64,000 nt of DNA from Vampirovibrio chlorellavorus. Lineage in GTDB: Bacteria; Cyanobacteriota; Vampirovibrionia; Vampirovibrionales; Vampirovibrionaceae. The notes beneath the pieces were generated by a model, which was not told the DNA's origin, searched no databases, and saw nothing but the letters and a program-made list of their open reading frames with translations. Below are positions 13,100 through 35,759 of the stretch, one piece after another. Every line of letters starts with the position of its first letter. The stretch's first letter is position 1. The position numbers and the translations under genes are program-made. The DNA lies in assembly GCA_001858525.1 (NCBI GenBank), contig LAPX01000005.1, forward strand, positions 62,001-126,000, in the 5' to 3' direction.

Positions 13100-13386
13100 T
13101 GCAGGGATGGCACAAATTGTTAGCCGCCCGGTTTATTTTTTATGTATGATGCCAAGATGATGTCATGTCCCAATCAATGATTCGCTTTTTATGTTCATCC
13201 CTCTCGTTCAATTGAATACATTCTGTTGGTGGTGCCTTGCGATTGAAGGGCCGCCGTTCTCAAGGTAAGTTTGGGCATTGACTAAAAATTTTGAGAAACC
13301 GGCAGACTTCAGTCCATTAGGAAGCACGTCGGTTTTTTTGCTAGGACCCTTTTTTACTCCCTCTTTCCAGAAACACATGCTTACTT

Positions 13387-14925
13387 ATGCCTCCAGTTGA
13401 AACACAAATTGCCAAAGTGCCGTTGGTGCTCCAGAAAATGCCTTTCTGGGAGAAAACGGTGGGTAATTTGCTGCACTTGAGCGAGGGGCAAAATGGCTTG
13501 TCCTGGATGTCTTTTATTCGGGATACTTCGGTGGCCTGGTTACCCAAAATCGTGGTTTCCCGCAGCCTGATTGAAATCTCAGAAAGCACCTTCCTGGAGT
13601 TTCTGGAGTCCGGGGTGGTTTACTTTTCAGTGCCGGTGGCCGCTCAGGCCATGCATAAGTTTTTCCGGCGGCAGGCCGAAAAAAGCTATAACCAGAATTT
13701 ATCCAAGGAGTACCTGGGGCACTCTGTGGCCAAACTAACGCAGTTGGCGACCACGGCCGGGCATGAGGGGCTGAAAAAAGAACTGCCGCATTTGATCGCG
13801 GTGAAGGCGGCCACCATTTTGGGCCCCATGGTGGCAGTGGGCTTGGGTTGCGAGTATTTGATCAATTACAGTAAAAACTTAATGACCGCCCACTTCTTTA
13901 AGAAAGATAAATTCAGTGACATTGTGAATTTATCCAAGGGGGAGATGAAAACGGGCGAAGAGAGCCAGGTTGTCAAAAAATCGCTGCATCGAACCCTGGG
14001 GACTTTGGGCCTGATGGGTAGCACCTTGCTGGGTTCGGTGGCATTGGCCAAGTTTGGCCATCGATTGCCCCAAATGCCTTTGGCCTCTTTAAAGCAGAAA
14101 TTGCTCAAAAGCCCTCATTTCAGTAAACTGGGCCGCTGGGTACCGGAGAACCCGGTCGGCGCCCTGGTGGATCATCTGGACTATGACGCCAAGAAGGGTG
14201 GATTTTCTATTTCCGGGAAGCAGTTGCGCTGGTATATGGCCGCCTCTATTCCCGCTTACGCCGATGCGGCCCGGGACAAGCTGGAGCGGGTCGAGGCGGT
14301 GTCTCGACTGGGTGTGATTATGGGCTATCTGGCTTTTGGTCAGCAGGCCTTGGAGCGGGGTATGTTGAGTGTCATCCGTAAGTTTCGTCCGGATTTACAC
14401 AGGGCCATGATTGCCCCAGTGTCGCCCAGCGGGAAAATGCAGGTTATGCGACTTCAGGATGTGGTGGACCGGGCTTTCAACAAGGTCAACGCGACTCAGG
14501 GGCATCAAGTGGTGGCTGTTGATAAAGTGGAAGGCTTACTGGGCAAGGCCGATCAGGCCGCTGCCAGCATTGCCGCCGATGCCGAGCTGAAAAAGGCCAT
14601 TCTGGGGAAAAATGTATTGTTCGGGGTGCCTATGGTGGTGGGGATTTTGGGCACCGGGGTGGGCGTGACCCTGCTCAACCAGTTCTGGACCAAGTATCGA
14701 TTCCACAAAGCCCAGCAACCCATAGTATTAGGGAGTACCAGCCCGTCACTGCCTAAAGGTGTCTCTGCGCCCAATCCGCTGGCCTTGGCTACGGCCAATG
14801 GAGCCGCCAACAGTGCCTTGTTGAATCATGGTTTTTCCGGGCAAGCGAGTCGTTTTCCCCAGAGAACGGCCCCGGCCCCTTTTTCGAATATAAATCCTAG
14901 CCAGTCCTGGGCATGGCAGATATAA
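13387..14925 (+). CDS. uncharacterised protein, tandem paralog A
   Basis: 512-aa ORF sharing FIRDTSVAWLPKIVVSRS...LEF.ES and INYSKNLMTAHFFKKDKFSDIVNL with the next gene. Confidence 0.75.
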   Translation: MPPVETQIAKVPLVLQKMPFWEKTVGNLLHLSEGQNGLSWMSFIRDTSVAWLPKIVVSRSLIEISESTFLEFLESGVVYFSVPVAAQAMHKFFRRQAEKSYNQNLSKEYLGHSVAKLTQLATTAGHEGLKKELPHLIAVKAATILGPMVAVGLGCEYLINYSKNLMTAHFFKKDKFSDIVNLSKGEMKTGEESQVVKKSLHRTLGTLGLMGSTLLGSVALAKFGHRLPQMPLASLKQKLLKSPHFSKLGRWVPENPVGALVDHLDYDAKKGGFSISGKQLRWYMAASIPAYADAARDKLERVEAVSRLGVIMGYLAFGQQALERGMLSVIRKFRPDLHRAMIAPVSPSGKMQVMRLQDVVDRAFNKVNATQGHQVVAVDKVEGLLGKADQAAASIAADAELKKAILGKNVLFGVPMVVGILGTGVGVTLLNQFWTKYRFHKAQQPIVLGSTSPSLPKGVSAPNPLALATANGAANSALLNHGFSGQASRFPQRTAPAPFSNINPSQSWAWQI

Positions 14926-15166: not shown

Positions 15167-16600
15167 GTGACAAAGGTTCCCCCCGTTAGTTCTATAGCCT
15201 CAAATGCCGCCCATGTGCTGAAACAAAGCAAATTGGCCAAAGCCCTGGCTTTTCAGGAAGGCCAGGGTGGTGGTACCACTATGAAGTTTTTGCAGGACAC
15301 CGGCACTGCCTGGATGCCTAAAATCCTGATTTCCCGAAGCAAGGCGGAAGGGGCGGAAGTCAGCCTGCTGGAGTTTGGGGAATCGGCCATGACGTATGCC
15401 TTGCCCACCCTGTTCGGGCCGGGGCTGGCTAATTTGTTTTTTAAGGTCTCTGGGAAAAGTGAGGGCTTTCGGAAGCAGTTACTCACCCAAACCTTTGATC
15501 AACTCAAAACCGAAGGCAATTCAGAGGCCGCTCATCGGGCCATGGCTGCCAAGGCCGGGATTATTCTGACCACCATTGGCGGAATTGGCTTATGGGGGGA
15601 ATCTCTGGTCAATTACGGCAAGAATTTGATGACCGCTAAAGTCTTCAAGAAAGATACGTTCAGTGATGTCATCAATTTAGGGCAAAGTTCAGGGCAAAGT
15701 TTCGCAAGCACAACCAATGACTCATCGGCCATTGATGACAGTCCCAAAGTGCGTAAGGCCAAGCGACGCATTGTGCAAGCGACTGCCGCTTTTGGCGGGA
15801 TCTTGGGCAGTTCGTTTTTGCTGGCCCGCTTTGGGCATCGCTTCGATTGGTCCAAAGCCTTGTCCAGGAAAATGGTGAAACATCTCGATTTTGATTTTGC
15901 CCATAAAGAGGGCGGTAAAGTGGCCTTTGGCCTGGGTAACCGAAAAGGCATGTTGGGAGCCATTATGCTCACCTGCTCCATTCCGTATCTCGATTCTGCC
16001 CGGGACGGTTATGAGCGGCTGGAAACGGCTATTCGGCTGCCCGTGGTATTCGCTTATATTTTGTACGGTCAGGAATTTGTACAAAAGCTAATGTTCAAGA
16101 CCTTTCCCGGTCTTTTCAGGGGGGCCCTGGACGAGAAAAGCCAACTGCTCAGCACCCAGCAGATTGCTCAAAACGTGGTGCAACAGCATTGGAAGGCGGG
16201 ACAGGACTGGAGCCCTGAGGTGCAGCAAAAAGTACTGGCTGATATGAGGCGGCCCATGGTTTCCAAGGCCATGACGGTGGCTTTTCCCTTGCTCAGTGGG
16301 ATTTTAGTAACCGGTATTGGCTTGGGCTTGTTCAATCGACTGTTGACCAGCTATCGGTTTAAAAAGCAGGCCCAGCAGCCCGCGGTGCCGGTCGCTGGCA
16401 TACCCGGCACAACCGGGATACCCAATGCCTCCACCTCGTCATCCATGACACCTTCCGCAACGCCTTTCGGATTCTCCGCCACACCGCAATCTTGGGCAAG
16501 TCATCCCACTCGGCCTGGCTTTACGGGATTTCAGAATACGACTGGGCCATTAGCCATTCCGGCAGCTCAGCCGGTGGTGACCCCGGTGGCTTATCGCTAG
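15167..16600 (+). CDS. uncharacterised protein, tandem paralog B
   Basis: 477-aa ORF with FLQDTGTAWMPKILISRS...LEFGES and VNYGKNLMTAKVFKKDTFSDVINL matching the preceding gene. Confidence 0.75.
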   Translation: MTKVPPVSSIASNAAHVLKQSKLAKALAFQEGQGGGTTMKFLQDTGTAWMPKILISRSKAEGAEVSLLEFGESAMTYALPTLFGPGLANLFFKVSGKSEGFRKQLLTQTFDQLKTEGNSEAAHRAMAAKAGIILTTIGGIGLWGESLVNYGKNLMTAKVFKKDTFSDVINLGQSSGQSFASTTNDSSAIDDSPKVRKAKRRIVQATAAFGGILGSSFLLARFGHRFDWSKALSRKMVKHLDFDFAHKEGGKVAFGLGNRKGMLGAIMLTCSIPYLDSARDGYERLETAIRLPVVFAYILYGQEFVQKLMFKTFPGLFRGALDEKSQLLSTQQIAQNVVQQHWKAGQDWSPEVQQKVLADMRRPMVSKAMTVAFPLLSGILVTGIGLGLFNRLLTSYRFKKQAQQPAVPVAGIPGTTGIPNASTSSSMTPSATPFGFSATPQSWASHPTRPGFTGFQNTTGPLAIPAAQPVVTPVAYR

Positions 16601-30545: not shown

Positions 30546-31685
30546 TTAAGCGTTTCCACCACTGAGCAGACTAACCACCAAACGGCGCTGATTGGGGCTG
30601 TACTCCTCAGCCTTTAAGGCTGGATAGACCGTGCCACCGGAGGCGCCTTCGACGGTTTGTCCCAGGTCGTTTTGCACAAAGCGAACCCCTTGGGCCATGT
30701 CTTCCTGAATCATAGTCTGGACGCTCACAGTCAGGGCATTCAGGGCTTGCAGATTATCCGGGGCGATTTGGGCCACCCGAATGGCATCGCCCAAAGGCGC
30801 TTGCAGATCGGCCAATCGCAAGCCCAGGAAGCGGATATTCACATTGCGAAAAGCAGGCTCCCAAGCCGAGGCCAGCTTGAGTGCTGTGGCCGTTCCGGTC
30901 AATAAGCCACCCCCGCCAATGGGGGCAATAATGACCACCTCTTCATACGGGTGCTGGCCCAGTAAATCGCCAATTTGGGCTAATAGTTCCAAGCCCAGGG
31001 TGCCTTGACCGGCCACCACCCAAGGGTCGTTGTACGGATCAAGATAAGCCTCATCCTGTCCCTGGTTGGCCATGGCCCAAGCCCGGGCTTCATCGAAGGT
31101 GCTCCCCTTAAATAATAAATCGGCCTGAACACCGTTGGCATTCAGACCGTCAATTGCTTTGCGCAGTTTTTCAAGTTTAAGGGCGGCGGTGTTACCGGGG
31201 ACGACCAGGCGCACCGCCTGCGGGAGAAGGAGTTCCGCAGCCTTAAGCACACCCAGGGCATGGTTGCCGGTAGACACGGTGAGAAACCGTTTGACGTGGT
31301 TGCTTTCCATAAACTTGGCCATGCCCACAACCGCGCCTCTTAACTTATAGGCACGGGTGGCGGTTTGATCTTCCCGCTTGTAATACAAATGGGGCAGCAG
31401 GGTGGATGGGGTCAAGGCCGTCAAGGGCGCTTGGGGTTCCCCACTATTGGCCAAGGCTGGGTTAAAACGAGCCAACAGTCGCAGATTATCCCGATACCGA
31501 TCCAGTATACGGCTGGCTTCCAGAATTTTGGCGTATCGGTGCACCAGCGGCAAATAAGACTGTATGGATAACCCCGCCGGAAAGCCCGGCAGCCTAATTC
31601 GTCCGTCCTCATCAATGGCCGGAATGGTGCTGGCCGCTAGATGGTTCAGGTCGAATTTCAGGTAGGCGTTTGGGCTTTCCAACAT
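30546..31685 (-). CDS. PLP fold-II threonine dehydratase-like enzyme
   Basis: YYKREDQTATRAYKLRGA, STGNHALG, PIGGGGLLTG; adjacent to ilvC. Confidence 0.72.
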   Translation of the reverse strand: MLESPNAYLKFDLNHLAASTIPAIDEDGRIRLPGFPAGLSIQSYLPLVHRYAKILEASRILDRYRDNLRLLARFNPALANSGEPQAPLTALTPSTLLPHLYYKREDQTATRAYKLRGAVVGMAKFMESNHVKRFLTVSTGNHALGVLKAAELLLPQAVRLVVPGNTAALKLEKLRKAIDGLNANGVQADLLFKGSTFDEARAWAMANQGQDEAYLDPYNDPWVVAGQGTLGLELLAQIGDLLGQHPYEEVVIIAPIGGGGLLTGTATALKLASAWEPAFRNVNIRFLGLRLADLQAPLGDAIRVAQIAPDNLQALNALTVSVQTMIQEDMAQGVRFVQNDLGQTVEGASGGTVYPALKAEEYSPNQRRLVVSLLSGGNA

Positions 31686-31707: not shown

Positions 31708-32754
31708 CTAGTTTTTATCCCGATTGACCAGCTTATTGCCAGACAACCAGCTCATCATGCCACGGAGTTTGCGGCCAGCCACTTCCAGCGGATGCTGGCG
31801 GTCGGCTTCCACCCGTTTTTTCAATTCGGGCATACCGCTGCGGTATTCTTCCATCCATTCGCGGGCAAATTCGCCGGACTGGATTTCAGCCAGAATTTGT
31901 TTCATGGCCACTTTGGTGTCGGCGGTAATCACCCGAGGTCCCCGGCTGACATCGCCGTAACGGGCCGTATCACTGATGGAGTAGCGCATGTCTTCCAGAC
32001 CGCCTTCATACATCAAATCCACGATCAGCTTCAGTTCGTGCAGACATTCAAAGTAGGCCAATTCCGGAGGGTACCCGGCTTCAGTCAAGGTCTCAAAACC
32101 GGCTTTGACCAAGGCGGCAGCCCCACCGCACAATACGGCTTGCTCCCCGAATAGATCGGTTTCAGTTTCATCTTTAAAGTTGGTTTCAATGACCCCGGCC
32201 CGACCAGAACCCAGACAGGCCGCGTACCCCAAGGCCAATTCACGGGCTTCGCCAGTGGCGTTTTGATGCACGGCAAACAGGGAAGGCACCCCACGATCCC
32301 GCTGGTACTCAGAACGCACCAGGTGACCGGGGCTTTTGGGGGCAATCAGGAATACGTCTACATCGGCGGGTGGCACGATTTCGTTGTAGTGAATGCTGAA
32401 CCCGTGGCTGAAAACCAAAGCCTGACCGGGTTTGAGTTTGCCTTCAAAGTATTGTTTGTACACGGGGCCGTGTTGCACATCGGGAATCAGGAACATGATC
32501 AAATCAGCCCACTCGGCGGCTTGCTCCAGAGAAATGGCTTCCAGACCGGCTTCCTGAACCTTGGCCTCGGTGGCGCTGCCAGCTCGCAAGGCGATTTTTA
32601 CAGTGGCCCCGGATTCTTTCAGGTTTAAACTTTGTCCGTAGCCTTGGCTGCCAAAGCCCACCACGGCCACTTTTTTAGCCAGCAGTTTGCTGCGGTCGAT
32701 GTCTTTATCGTAAAAAATACTCAGGGTTTGGGGGGCGTTAAGCGTTGTGGGCAT
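31708..32754 (-). CDS. ilvC: ketol-acid reductoisomerase
   Basis: KVAVVGFGSQGYGQSLNLKESG; APKSPGHLVRSEY; YSISDTARYGD. Confidence 0.95.
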   Translation of the reverse strand: MPTTLNAPQTLSIFYDKDIDRSKLLAKKVAVVGFGSQGYGQSLNLKESGATVKIALRAGSATEAKVQEAGLEAISLEQAAEWADLIMFLIPDVQHGPVYKQYFEGKLKPGQALVFSHGFSIHYNEIVPPADVDVFLIAPKSPGHLVRSEYQRDRGVPSLFAVHQNATGEARELALGYAACLGSGRAGVIETNFKDETETDLFGEQAVLCGGAAALVKAGFETLTEAGYPPELAYFECLHELKLIVDLMYEGGLEDMRYSISDTARYGDVSRGPRVITADTKVAMKQILAEIQSGEFAREWMEEYRSGMPELKKRVEADRQHPLEVAGRKLRGMMSWLSGNKLVNRDKN

Positions 32755-33106
32755 GGGCCATTCTCCTTTGGGGCTGATCTTGAATAATATCGGATACGAA
32801 CAGGGGGGTAATGTTAGACGCTTCAGCGCTGTTCTTCGCTTCCGCTGCTGGTTGAAGGGTGTGCGCTTTTAGCACGTAAACTTGCTTTTGCAGGAATTTG
32901 ACCAGTTTTTCAATGGTTTTATCTTCCTGCGTTTCAAAGGTCAGTAGAATTTCCAGTTGATTGTTTTCGCACAGGGCGGATGCCATCCGTTGGGGAATGA
33001 TGCCCCGATGGGTCAAGGCGCCTAGTACCCGATCCAGGGCCCCCAGGCGGTTTTGGGTCAGGCAGTATAAGTGCTGCGAGCCAGAAGACTGGTTGGGATC
33101 AGTCAT
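32738..33106 (-). CDS. ilvN: acetolactate synthase small subunit (ACT)
   Basis: NRLGALDRVLGALTHRGIIPQRM, between ilvB and ilvC. Confidence 0.8.
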   Translation of the reverse strand: MTDPNQSSGSQHLYCLTQNRLGALDRVLGALTHRGIIPQRMASALCENNQLEILLTFETQEDKTIEKLVKFLQKQVYVLKAHTLQPAAEAKNSAEASNITPLFVSDIIQDQPQRRMAHAHNA

Positions 33107-33208
33107 TTCAGAACCTCTTAAATTGTGGGTTGGTGATAATTGCATGATGTTTTGAATCTCTTATATTGTTTGAATCTCGTTTATTAAAAATGAGCTGCTA
33201 CTACTCTT

Positions 33209-34969
33209 TTATTCTTCGACGAGCATGTCCTCATTGGCCCCGCCTGCTGGCACCCACGGATAGACATCCGCTTTTTCCCGCACCCGGAAATCAATCAAAA
33301 CCGGGCGATCGGTAATGGCATAAGCTTGCCGGATCACGGTGTCCACATCCTCGGGACGCTCCACCACAAAGCCCGCGCAGCCGTAGGCTTCGGCCAGCTT
33401 CACGTAATCGGGAGAGGTCATTCTGGATTGAGAAGGGCGGTTCCAGGTTTTATCCTGCCACTGGCGGACCATGCCCAGATAACCGTTGTTGATGATGGCT
33501 ACTTTGACGGCCAACCCGTGATCGCGGGCCGTGGCCAGCTCTTGCAGGGTCATTTGGAAGCTACCGTCTCCGGCGATATCAATGACCGTTTTGTCGGGGA
33601 AAGCCGCTTGCACCCCAATGGCCGCTGGAAATCCAAAGCCCATGGTGCCCAATCCGCCGGAACTAATAAAGCTGCGCGGGCGATCCAGATTGAAGCGCTG
33701 AGCGGCCCACATTTGATGCTGGCCCACTTCGGTGGTCACAAAGGCGTCTTTGGGTAAGTGGTGGAAAATGCGATCCAGCACGAATTGCGGGGTCAATACG
33801 CCATCCAGCATTTGCTGATTGTTGCGTCGTGTTTTCCAGCTCTGGATGGTTCTGAACCAGTGAGAGCGATCATCCAGAGAGGCCCGAAATTCGCTCATGT
33901 CATCGGTTTTGGCCAGTAGTTGCTGAAAAATATTTTTAATATCCCCCTGCACTGGCAGAAAGGCTTCCACGTTTTTTTGCAAGGTGCTGGGATCCAGATC
34001 GATGTGCACGATTTTGGCGTTGCGGGCAAAGCGATCCGTTTTACCGGTTTGCCGCTCTCCCAACCGATTGCCCACGATGATTAACAGATCGGCGTTGGCA
34101 ATGGCGATGTTGGCCCAATACTGGCCGTGCATGCCACAAAAGCCCAAAAACTGAGGATGACTGGTGGGAAAGCCGCCCAGACCCATCAGCGAGTTGGCTA
34201 CGGGTAAATTAAAGCGCTCGGCGAAGGCCTTGATTTCGGAATGTGCCCCGGCGTTGATAACCCCGCCACCGGCCAGTAGCACTGGCTGCTTGGCTTCTTG
34301 TAACAGCGCCAAAACGGCATCCAGATCTTCAGGGGTGAATGATTCTTCTACCGTGTAACCGGGCAGATCGATGCTGGCCGCTGCGTAGTCAAATTCAGCG
34401 GTGGCTAGCAGTACATCCTTGGGGATGTCCACCAGCACCGGGCCAGGACGGCCTGTGGTGGCCACATGGAAGGCTTCCTTGATGGCTTGTGCCAAATCTT
34501 CGGCCCGTCGCACGATGATGTTGTGCTTGGTTACCGGTCGGGTAATGCCCACAATGTCAGCTTCCTGGAAGGCATCGTTCCCAAGCAAGGAAGAGGGCAC
34601 GTTGCCGGTGAAGGCCACAACGGGCACGGAATCGTAATAGGCATCGGCCAAGCCGGTCACCAGATTGGTGGCCCCAGGGCCGGAGGTGGCAATAGCCACG
34701 CCTGCTTTGCCGGTGGCTCGGGCATAGCCTTCCGCCATGTGGACGGCCCCTTGTTCGTGGCGCACCAAAATGTGGTTCAAACTCGGAAATTCGGGCAAAG
34801 CTTCATAAATGGAGAGGATGACGCCACCGGGCATGCCAAACAGGGTGTCCACCCCTTCAGCCACCAGACAGCTCAGGAAAATTTGCGCCCCGGTTAATAC
34901 GGCGGGGTGTGGGTTGCTTTCGGAAGCAGCGGAATTGCTCCACTCAATTCGTTCACTACGCGCGGCCAT
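33209..34969 (-). CDS. ilvB: acetolactate synthase large subunit
   Basis: DTLFGMPGGVILSIYEAL, RHEQGAVHMAEGYARATGKAGVAIATSGPGATN, ThDP motif GDGSFQMTLQELATARDHGLAVKVAIINN. Confidence 0.95.
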   Translation of the reverse strand: MAARSERIEWSNSAASESNPHPAVLTGAQIFLSCLVAEGVDTLFGMPGGVILSIYEALPEFPSLNHILVRHEQGAVHMAEGYARATGKAGVAIATSGPGATNLVTGLADAYYDSVPVVAFTGNVPSSLLGNDAFQEADIVGITRPVTKHNIIVRRAEDLAQAIKEAFHVATTGRPGPVLVDIPKDVLLATAEFDYAAASIDLPGYTVEESFTPEDLDAVLALLQEAKQPVLLAGGGVINAGAHSEIKAFAERFNLPVANSLMGLGGFPTSHPQFLGFCGMHGQYWANIAIANADLLIIVGNRLGERQTGKTDRFARNAKIVHIDLDPSTLQKNVEAFLPVQGDIKNIFQQLLAKTDDMSEFRASLDDRSHWFRTIQSWKTRRNNQQMLDGVLTPQFVLDRIFHHLPKDAFVTTEVGQHQMWAAQRFNLDRPRSFISSGGLGTMGFGFPAAIGVQAAFPDKTVIDIAGDGSFQMTLQELATARDHGLAVKVAIINNGYLGMVRQWQDKTWNRPSQSRMTSPDYVKLAEAYGCAGFVVERPEDVDTVIRQAYAITDRPVLIDFRVREKADVYPWVPAGGANEDMLVEE

Positions 34970-35147
34970 AACACCCTCCTTGCATGGTAATTCGGGTTTG
35001 GGTGTTGGCGGTGGTGGCAGCGCTCAGGGCGAACACGACCACCTGGCTAGGGCGGACGACAGTGGGTGGTGTGCCCAGCAGGAGGACGACCACGCGGTTC
35101 AGCAATTTGGAGATGGCTTGGAAGTTGCTGAAAGTGTGTGTGGTCAT
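34956..35147 (-). CDS. Val/Leu-rich 63-aa leader ORF overlapping ilvB start
   Basis: MTTHTFSNFQAISKLLNRVVVLLLGTPPTVVRPSQVVVFALSAATTANTQTRITMQGGCYGRA; AAGGAG 7 nt before ATG. Confidence 0.55.
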   Translation of the reverse strand: MTTHTFSNFQAISKLLNRVVVLLLGTPPTVVRPSQVVVFALSAATTANTQTRITMQGGCYGRA

Positions 35148-35236
35148 TGGGCGACTCCTTTTTAATTGGCTGCTGATGGATTATTGATAGGTTGGACTAA
35201 AACGTAGTTGGAATACTGGGTGTTGGCCTTAAAGCA

Positions 35237-35266
35237 AAACCGCCGGTCCCTGGGGGCCGGCGGTTT
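35237..35266 (-). terminator. ilvB attenuator terminator
   Basis: rc AAACCGCCGG-cccccaggga-CCGGCGGTTT then TGCTTT. Confidence 0.85.
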
Positions 35267-35298
35267 GTTGAATCTGTTGTTCTCGTTCTGAACAGGAT

Positions 35299-35367
35299 TC
35301 AAATCCCACCGGCAGGGCCGCTGAGAATGACTACGAGAATAATGACTACGCTGTTCAGAATGTTCAT
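35299..35367 (-). CDS. ilvB attenuation leader peptide
   Basis: Manual translation MNILNSVVIILVVILSGPAGGI*; 13 of 22 residues are Ile/Leu/Val; followed by antiterminator and terminator. Confidence 0.8.
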   Translation of the reverse strand: MNILNSVVIILVVILSGPAGGI

Positions 35368-35759
35368 AAGAACGAAAGTAAATTCCGTACTAAATAATGA
35401 ATAAAGTGGAAGGTGAACAAGCTCACATTTGCACTTTAGTAGGTGTCATCATAACACATAGCTCAGGAAAAACAATCAGGGAAAATAATCTGATACTTTT
35501 ATTGACAGGAATAGAGACTTTTTAACTTGGGAGCTGCAACAAGAATGATATCGGGCAAAAGATTGGCGAATGAAAACCGGATGTGTACAATAGTGACAGC
35601 GTTTTGAGGCGAGGGCGGCTTGGATTAGTATTACCAATGCATTTTTAGGAGACATTTTTTTGAGTCAGTTTGAGTCAACATCTCAGGATGTTTAGGCCAG
35701 TCCGCCCGGTTTATTTTTTAGAGAGTGGATTTAGAAAAGGATAGAGAGAGAGAGAGCGT

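What the first reader, a model, noticed from the sequence alone, without database searches (positions are those of the whole stretch)
35237..35367. Complete ribosome-mediated attenuator upstream of ilvB
Read on the minus strand: leader peptide MNILNSVVIILVVILSGPAGGI* (35367-35299). Segment A TTCTGAACAG (35360-35351, inside the Ile-Leu codons) is exactly complementary to C CTGTTCAGAA (35295-35286). Segment B GCCGGTGG (35313-35306, just before the leader stop) can pair with D CCGCCGGC, the 5' arm of the terminator AAACCGCCGG/CCGGCGGTTT, with one G-U. A:C and B:D would form a pseudoknot, so they compete. A ribosome stalled on Ile/Leu/Val codons blocks A, which frees B to pair with D (antitermination). 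Otherwise A:C and the terminator form. The logic parallels enterobacterial ilvB/ilvGMEDA attenuation. I know of no description in this lineage, but could not check.
Basis: partly seen in the sequence, partly recalled or inferred. Interest (0 to 1): 0.8.

Follow-up and report, generated by a model that had tools for sequence, protein, structure and literature searches.

The report
Amino-acid attenuator before ilvB
A predatory relative of cyanobacteria (Vampirovibrio) appears to switch its branched-chain amino-acid operon on and off by letting a ribosome 'taste' isoleucine, leucine and valine on a short leader peptide; this is a textbook mechanism, here in a lineage where we found no description of it, with an unexplained second leader gene in front of the enzyme gene.

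Summary
The minus strand at 35367-35237 holds a 22-codon Ile/Leu/Val leader ORF, a 10-bp A:C complementarity, an 8-bp B:D complementarity (one G-U) and a GC-rich terminator, upstream of an ilvB-ilvN-ilvC-threonine dehydratase operon in Vampirovibrio (Vampirovibrionales, Melainabacteria/Cyanobacteriota). It is not chance. The unit recurs before ilvB in 9 of the 11 ilvB-bearing genomes held for the order. A:C, B:D and a further stem S (35302-35296 with 35274-35268) are kept by compensatory changes. In 2.09 Mb of this genome it is the only Ile/Leu/Val leader followed by a terminator. The control codons end about where a stalled ribosome would still leave antiterminator strand B free, in all six species modelled. 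Ribosome-mediated transcription attenuation is therefore the best explanation (about 0.92). The order uses the same device elsewhere: Phe/Tyr leaders before DAHP synthase, an Ile leader before threonine dehydratase, and Met, His and Trp leaders before an uncharacterised protein family. No RNA or expression data exist here.

The parts
35448..35458 (-). putative extended -10 promoter element TGTGTTATGAT (transcript start then about 35440)
   Evidence: TGTGTTAYRAT is kept in the five genus members; the simple sigma-70 scan found no minus-strand site, so inferred only
35299..35367 (-). leader ORF1, MNILNSVVIILVVILSGPAGGI*, no Shine-Dalgarno
   Evidence: leader conserved in 9 genomes of the order
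35323..35349 (-). control codons VVIILVVIL (GTA GTC ATT ATT CTC GTA GTC ATT CTC), including low-usage GTA and CTC
35351..35360 (-). segment A (5' arm of A:C, anti-antiterminator)
   Evidence: covariation
35317..35325 (-). segment B' (CTCAGCGGC), pairs with B in a local hairpin
   Evidence: MFE fold, RNAalifold; mostly invariant, so no covariation support
35306..35313 (-). segment B (5' arm of antiterminator), ends just before the leader stop
   Evidence: own-vs-swapped pairing; ribosome geometry
35296..35302 (-). stem S, 5' arm TTGAATC
   Evidence: double changes in L008 (ATAAG/CTTAT)
35286..35295 (-). segment C (3' arm of A:C), first bases of the loop of stem S
35268..35274 (-). stem S, 3' arm GATTCAA
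35256..35263 (-). segment D (3' arm of antiterminator; shared with the terminator 5' arm)
35237..35266 (-). intrinsic terminator AAACCGCCGG/CCGGCGGTTT followed by TGCTTT
   Evidence: 10 of 10 pairs kept in 8 sequences; -22.4 kcal/mol
35155..35163 (-). Shine-Dalgarno of ORF2 (AAAAAGGAG)
   Evidence: an SD precedes ORF2 in all 8 genomes that have it
34956..35147 (-). ORF2, 63 aa, Val/Leu-rich (LLNRVVVLLLGTPPTVV..QVVVF), stop overlaps ilvB start by 14 nt
34972..34981 (-). ilvB Shine-Dalgarno (AAGGAGGGTG), inside ORF2
33209..34969 (-). ilvB, acetolactate synthase large subunit (TIGR00118, 734.7 bits)
32738..33145 (-). short ilvN-like small subunit (TIGR00119 E 5.8e-8, below its cut-off)
31708..32754 (-). 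ilvC, ketol-acid reductoisomerase
30546..31685 (-). threonine dehydratase-like PLP enzyme (best NCBIfam hits are threonine ammonia-lyases, below cut-off)

Best explanation
A ribosome-mediated transcription attenuator of the ilv operon. SHOWN from sequence: ORF1, helices A:C, S, B:D and D:E, their conservation and covariation, and their positions. INFERRED: when Ile, Leu or Val is short, the ribosome stalls in the VVIILVVIL run. There it covers A and/or B', so B is free when D emerges; B pairs with D around stem S, the terminator cannot form, and ilvB-N-C and the threonine dehydratase gene are transcribed. When the amino acids are plentiful the ribosome runs to the stop codon and covers B, so D pairs with E and transcription stops. 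When the leader is not translated, A:C and B':B form before D is made and favour the terminator (anti-antitermination). ORF2 is most likely a translated, coupled second leader that passes ribosomes to ilvB; whether its Val/Leu run senses amino acids is unresolved.
For: Leader and operon are present in 9 of 11 ilvB-bearing genomes of the order. RNAalifold independently returns A:C, B':B and the terminator, with 7 double-changed pairs. A:C, S and D:E together: 93.9% of cells paired, 8 double-changed pairs, 0 of 500 shuffles, slid controls 0-2. In family f3 (L012) A:C and B:D have unrelated sequences that pair well only with their own partners. With a 12-nt downstream footprint, B is free at the control codons and masked from about the next codon on, in six species. 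Control codons track the gene: Ile for ilvA, Phe/Tyr for DAHP synthase in seven other genomes and in this one. It is the only Ile/Leu/Val leader with a terminator in 2.09 Mb. ORF2 shows pS 0.13-0.22 against pN 0.07-0.09; its Val/Leu core has only synonymous changes between L002 and L004.
Against: ORF1 has no Shine-Dalgarno. The U-tract is interrupted. No minus-strand promoter was found by the consensus scan. Nested equilibrium folding favours B:D over A:C even with no ribosome, so the untranslated state rests on kinetics. B':B does not covary. Two ilvB genomes of the order (L010, L011) lack the leader. No RNA-seq, term-seq or reporter data were available.
Confidence: 0.92

Rival explanations
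1. ORF1 encodes a functional hydrophobic micropeptide (membrane peptide or toxin-like) and the hairpin is an ordinary terminator ending its own transcript.
For: The peptide is very hydrophobic and conserved in the genus.
Against: Leader residues change with the regulated gene: Phe/Tyr for DAHP synthase, Ile for ilvA. Segment A keeps pairing with C while its codons change. There would be no reason for B to copy the terminator's 3' arm.
Confidence: 0.03
2. A metabolite riboswitch, T-box or protein-dependent terminator controls the operon, and the leader ORF is incidental.
For: Well-structured conserved 5' region (z -4.9); ilvB is under T-box or ppGpp riboswitch control in some Firmicutes (T-box from general knowledge; ppGpp riboswitch in PMC10272879).
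Against: No Rfam RNA-regulator family reaches its threshold, and only chance-level hits appear at relaxed threshold. Most conserved structure is inside or next to the ORF, with codon-specific content.
Confidence: 0.03
3. ORF2 is a major sensor in its own right: a translational attenuator in which a ribosome stalled on the Val/Leu run opens the ilvB ribosome-binding site.
For: ORF2 is conserved, codes for V/L runs, has a strong SD and overlaps the ilvB start by 11 or 14 nt in 8 genomes; purifying selection.
Against: Synonymous recoding of ORF2 leaves accessibility of either ribosome-binding site unchanged in nearly all species, so no selected sequestering structure was detected. The V/L run is weak in L008 and L009. 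It would add to, not replace, the ORF1 attenuator.
Confidence: 0.08
4. The leader is a decayed attenuator that no longer regulates.
For: Interrupted U-tract, no SD before ORF1, leader absent in genus g8 (L010, L011).
Against: Compensatory changes across two families plus wholly different arms in a third; ORF1 is identical between the window, L003 and L004 although flanks diverge.
Confidence: 0.04

Closest known systems
ilvB-II motif / ilvL attenuator of Corynebacterium ilvBNC (PMC10272879, PMC11857589)
   Same: Ile/Leu/Val leader ORF upstream of ilvB, terminator, antiterminator formed by pairing the terminator 5' arm with a region of the first hairpin, and an anti-antiterminator; ilvBNC operon.
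   Different: Different sequences. Here A:C spans almost the whole ORF, a separate stem S sits inside the antiterminator, and a second ORF overlaps ilvB. C. glutamicum ilvL starts one nt from the transcript start (PMC11857589); here a leader of about 70 nt before ORF1 is inferred.
Enterobacterial ivbL (ilvBN) and ilvGMEDA attenuators (established knowledge)
   Same: Classical 1:2, 2:3, 3:4 logic maps onto B':B, B:D, D:E; control codons for branched-chain amino acids.
   Different: Extra A:C helix whose 5' arm lies upstream of the control codons; extra coupled ORF2; no Shine-Dalgarno at ORF1.
ilvB-OMG motif and Leptospira ilvB motif (PMC10272879)
   Same: uORFs rich in branched-chain amino acid codons upstream of ilvB, attenuation proposed.
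   Different: No Rfam match here; their consensus was not available for direct comparison, so the relation is untested.
Actinobacterial ilvB leader peptides (PMC1262725)
   Same: Short ORFs with Ile/Val/Leu runs overlapping candidate terminators.
   Different: There codon substitution in S. coelicolor did not affect regulation; here a complete antiterminator set is present and covaries.

Membership tests
Ribosome-mediated transcription attenuator (trp/his/ilv type) | Short leader ORF with a run of codons for the operon's end products | tested here: met
   9 of 10 residues Ile/Leu/Val; operon identified as ilvB-N-C and a threonine dehydratase-like gene
Ribosome-mediated transcription attenuator (trp/his/ilv type) | Intrinsic terminator between leader ORF and first structural gene | tested here: met
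   35266-35237, -22.4 kcal/mol, 10 of 10 pairs kept; U-tract interrupted
Ribosome-mediated transcription attenuator (trp/his/ilv type) | Mutually exclusive antiterminator using the terminator 5' arm | tested here: met
   B:D, kept with a new sequence in L012 and by changes in L008 and L009
Ribosome-mediated transcription attenuator (trp/his/ilv type) | Anti-antiterminator that favours termination without a stalled ribosome | tested here: inconclusive
   A:C exists and covaries and B':B is present but invariant; dominance over B:D is not shown at equilibrium
Ribosome-mediated transcription attenuator (trp/his/ilv type) | Stall position leaves, and read-through masks, the antiterminator strand | tested here: met
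   Geometric calculation in six species, assumed footprint 12 nt
Ribosome-mediated transcription attenuator (trp/his/ilv type) | Promoter upstream of the leader ORF | tested here: inconclusive
   Conserved TGTGTTAYRAT by eye; scan negative
Ribosome-mediated transcription attenuator (trp/his/ilv type) | Induction by cognate amino-acid limitation | not testable with these tools
   needs term-seq or reporter
ilvB-OMG / ilvB-II RNA motifs | Match to the published covariance model | tested here: inconclusive
   No Rfam 15 hit, but presence of these models in the library was not verified
T-box or ppGpp riboswitch | Match to the Rfam family | tested here: not met
Translational attenuator (for ORF2) | Structure that hides the downstream ribosome-binding site until the leader ribosome stalls | tested here: not met
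   No excess sequestration over synonymous recodings; L006 alone marginal for the ORF2 SD (fraction 0.03)

The most novel reading that the evidence does not exclude
A two-layer tandem leader: ORF1 controls transcription by attenuation in response to Ile/Leu/Val, and ORF2, a second Val/Leu-coded leader overlapping the ilvB start by a fixed 11 or 14 nt, controls ilvB translation through coupling. The order would carry a whole regulon of such attenuators, including leaders that assign Met, His or Trp to paralogues of an uncharacterised protein family.
Probability: 0.35. Interest if true: 0.68.

Novelty: new variant of a known kind. Interest (0 to 1): 0.5.

Why it matters
Comparative work on amino-acid attenuators has centred on Proteobacteria and Firmicutes, with some in Actinobacteria (PMC1262725). 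The literature searches found nothing for Vampirovibrio or Melainabacteria, although only an open-licence library was searched. It would show that a predatory, non-photosynthetic cyanobacterial relative that makes its own Ile, Leu and Val (PMC4451040) still tunes that pathway by supply, presumably depending on how well its prey feeds it. Leader codons also offer a handle on genes of unknown function.

Tried and rejected
Rfam at gathering and relaxed thresholds: only a tRNA and chance hits. Same leader in other orders of the class: 19 ilvB loci, and 194 genomes with model R1, gave nothing convincing; two Leu-rich ORFs far upstream (L023, L025) look unrelated. SD sequestration by ORF2's Leu codons (CUCCU looks anti-SD) looked attractive in single folds but did not exceed synonymous recodings. 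Covariation of B':B: not supported. Rows of the own-genome scan for Trp, Cys, Arg and similar were mostly background.

Full report
WHAT WAS CHECKED. The minus strand from 35367 encodes MNILNSVVIILVVILSGPAGGI*. A (35360-35351) and C (35295-35286) are perfectly complementary over 10 bp. B (35313-35306) pairs with D (35263-35256) over 8 bp with one G-U, and D is part of the terminator stem 35266-35257 / 35246-35237. The leader folds better than all 200 dinucleotide shuffles (z -4.9). The downstream genes are acetolactate synthase large subunit (TIGR00118), a short small-subunit-like protein, ketol-acid reductoisomerase and a threonine dehydratase-like enzyme. The closest named relative is a Vampirovibrio chlorellavorus MAG (L032, 80% identity in IlvB); taxonomy Vampirovibrionales, Candidatus Melainabacteria in the NCBI scheme.

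CONSERVATION. The order has 18 genomes in the held set, 11 with this ilvB. Nine of the 11 carry an Ile/Leu/Val leader followed by a terminator: the five of the window's genus (window, L003, L004, L005, L006), plus L007, L008, L009 and, with wholly different sequence, L012. L010 and L011 (one genus) lack it. ORF1 is identical in the window, L003 and L004 and changes gradually to MFNPMNSIIILVVIILSGYAGG (L007) and MINSFVNSVVLLIIVLSGRPVSLESC (L009). Outside the order no convincing equivalent was seen.

COVARIATION. RNAalifold on the eight-genome alignment A3, given no structure, returns A:C, the B':B hairpin and the terminator, with seven pairs double-changed. Counting a named structure (A:C, stem S, D:E) gives 93.9% of cells paired and 8 pairs with changes on both sides (shuffled mean 1.7, 0 of 500 reach it); sliding the partners by 1 to 3 columns gives 0 to 2. 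Eight partly related sequences make the shuffle count an indication, not a probability. Pairing each species' 5' arm with every species' 3' arm gives the same message. L012's A pairs 9 of 10 with its own C and 5-6 with others; its B pairs 8 of 8 with its own D and 2-3 with others. L008's stem S pairs 6 of 7 with itself and 4 with others. B':B is nearly invariant and gets no such support.

Stem S (TTGAATC 35302-35296 / GATTCAA 35274-35268) begins at the leader stop codon and its loop starts with C. Thus A:C and S together have the topology of an H-type pseudoknot with adjoining stems, while B:D encloses S as one long antiterminator (about -27 kcal/mol for the B to D segment, against -22.4 for the terminator in the window). 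B is also held in a local hairpin with B' (35325-35317).

MECHANISM. Placing a ribosome on each codon and folding the RNA available just before E is made shows B:D forming for stalls at the control codons, and B masked from about the next codon onward, in six species (footprint of 12 nt assumed). This is the geometry a classical attenuator needs. A stall on the first control codons also covers A. Without a ribosome the nested equilibrium still prefers B:D, so the conserved A:C must work by order of synthesis: A:C and B':B are complete before D appears. That kinetic step is inferred. Control codons include the less used GTA (7.3 per thousand) and CTC (9.9 per thousand).

ORF2. Between terminator and ilvB lies a second ORF (35147-34956; MTTHTFSNFQAISKLLNRVVVLLLGTPPTVVRPSQVVVFALSAATTANTQTRITMQGGCYGRA*) with a strong Shine-Dalgarno. 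It occurs in the eight leader-bearing genomes other than L012. In all eight ilvB is in the +1 frame and the ORF2 stop lies 14 nt (six genomes) or 11 nt (two) into ilvB. Synonymous change exceeds non-synonymous change (pS 0.13-0.22, pN 0.07-0.09), and in its Val/Leu core all L002-L004 differences are synonymous. Length varies from 33 to 63 aa and the Val/Leu run is weak in L008 and L009. Translation and coupling to ilvB are likely. A sensing role was tested through sequestration of either ribosome-binding site and not supported. Its role is therefore left open.

A WIDER DEVICE. Model R1 and follow-up searches found the same plan elsewhere in the order: an Ile leader (MNTLINSIQIIIMLTASPVSSDCC) before a threonine dehydratase in G007; Phe/Tyr leaders before DAHP synthase in seven other genomes; and in this genome MKNTRWQNSFYFFYFYGFPVGVVC before a DAHP synthetase I family gene. 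Leaders rich in Met, His or Trp precede members of an uncharacterised protein family. That codon content tracks the regulated pathway in independent cases is strong support for attenuation in this lineage.

COMPARISON WITH KNOWN SYSTEMS. It works like the enterobacterial ilv attenuators and the Corynebacterium ilvB-II / ilvL attenuator (PMC10272879, PMC11857589). Of the sequence-testable defining features of the class, the leader codons, terminator, antiterminator and stall geometry are met; the promoter and the dominance of the anti-antiterminator are inconclusive. It matches no Rfam family; whether the ilvB-OMG and ilvB-II models are in that library was not verified. What differs is the A:C helix spanning the ORF, stem S inside the antiterminator, and the coupled ORF2. 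Literature searches found no report for Vampirovibrio or Melainabacteria, within an open-licence library only.

LIMITS. Verdict: a real, conserved ribosome-mediated attenuator, a new variant of a known kind.

Noticed in passing
window 13191-13268 (+), terminator 13296-13335, gene 13387-14925: Leader-like ORF MFIPLVQLNTFCWWCLAIEGPPFSR (Trp-Trp-Cys) followed by a terminator-like hairpin before a 512-aa protein without Pfam match; a paralogue follows at 15167-16600. Relatives have similar leaders with Trp runs (L187 MNWWWSALCRPPCSC, L188 ..SLCWWPCLYRPPVSR).
   Followed up: partly
L140/L178 (G000:C14:86006-86163), L179, L180, L181, L182, L183, L186: Met-rich leaders (e.g. MNAMITFTALLIGMMMMCPMILREDRPTSCAEG, MFLTAYNFAGMMMCPMLPRRIG) with similar GC-rich terminators before members of the same uncharacterised family, hinting at methionine-responsive attenuation.
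   Followed up: partly
L284:9290-9376 (G000:C26): His leader MLNLVLHHQHVHHHHHRMMAYGLLAGND with a terminator before a 594-aa member of the same uncharacterised family (profile search E 8e-52); paralogues thus carry leaders for different amino acids, which may hint at their roles.
   Followed up: partly
L221 about 6453 (-) (G000:C27); L151, L152, L153, L155, L156, L157, L159: Phe/Tyr leaders before DAHP synthase genes in this genome and seven other genomes of the order.
   Followed up: partly
L132 (G007:C12:66716-66856): Ile-run leader MNTLINSIQIIIMLTASPVSSDCC before a threonine dehydratase gene, in a genome without a close ilvB match.
   Followed up: partly
L133 (G012:C104:5636-5766): Val/Ile leader (..RVVIIDVAVIIPITGLPGINLH) and terminator before a 134-aa ORF of unknown nature.
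   Followed up: no
window 32738-33145 (-): The ilvN-like small subunit is only 135 aa and scores below the TIGR00119 cut-off: short or divergent acetolactate synthase regulatory subunit.
   Followed up: no
leaders at ilvB, DAHP synthase, Met and His loci: ORF1-type leaders mostly lack a Shine-Dalgarno, while ORF2 and the ilvB gene have one; the His and Phe/Tyr leaders of this genome start within a few bases of a -10-like box, so some may be on leaderless transcripts.
   Followed up: no
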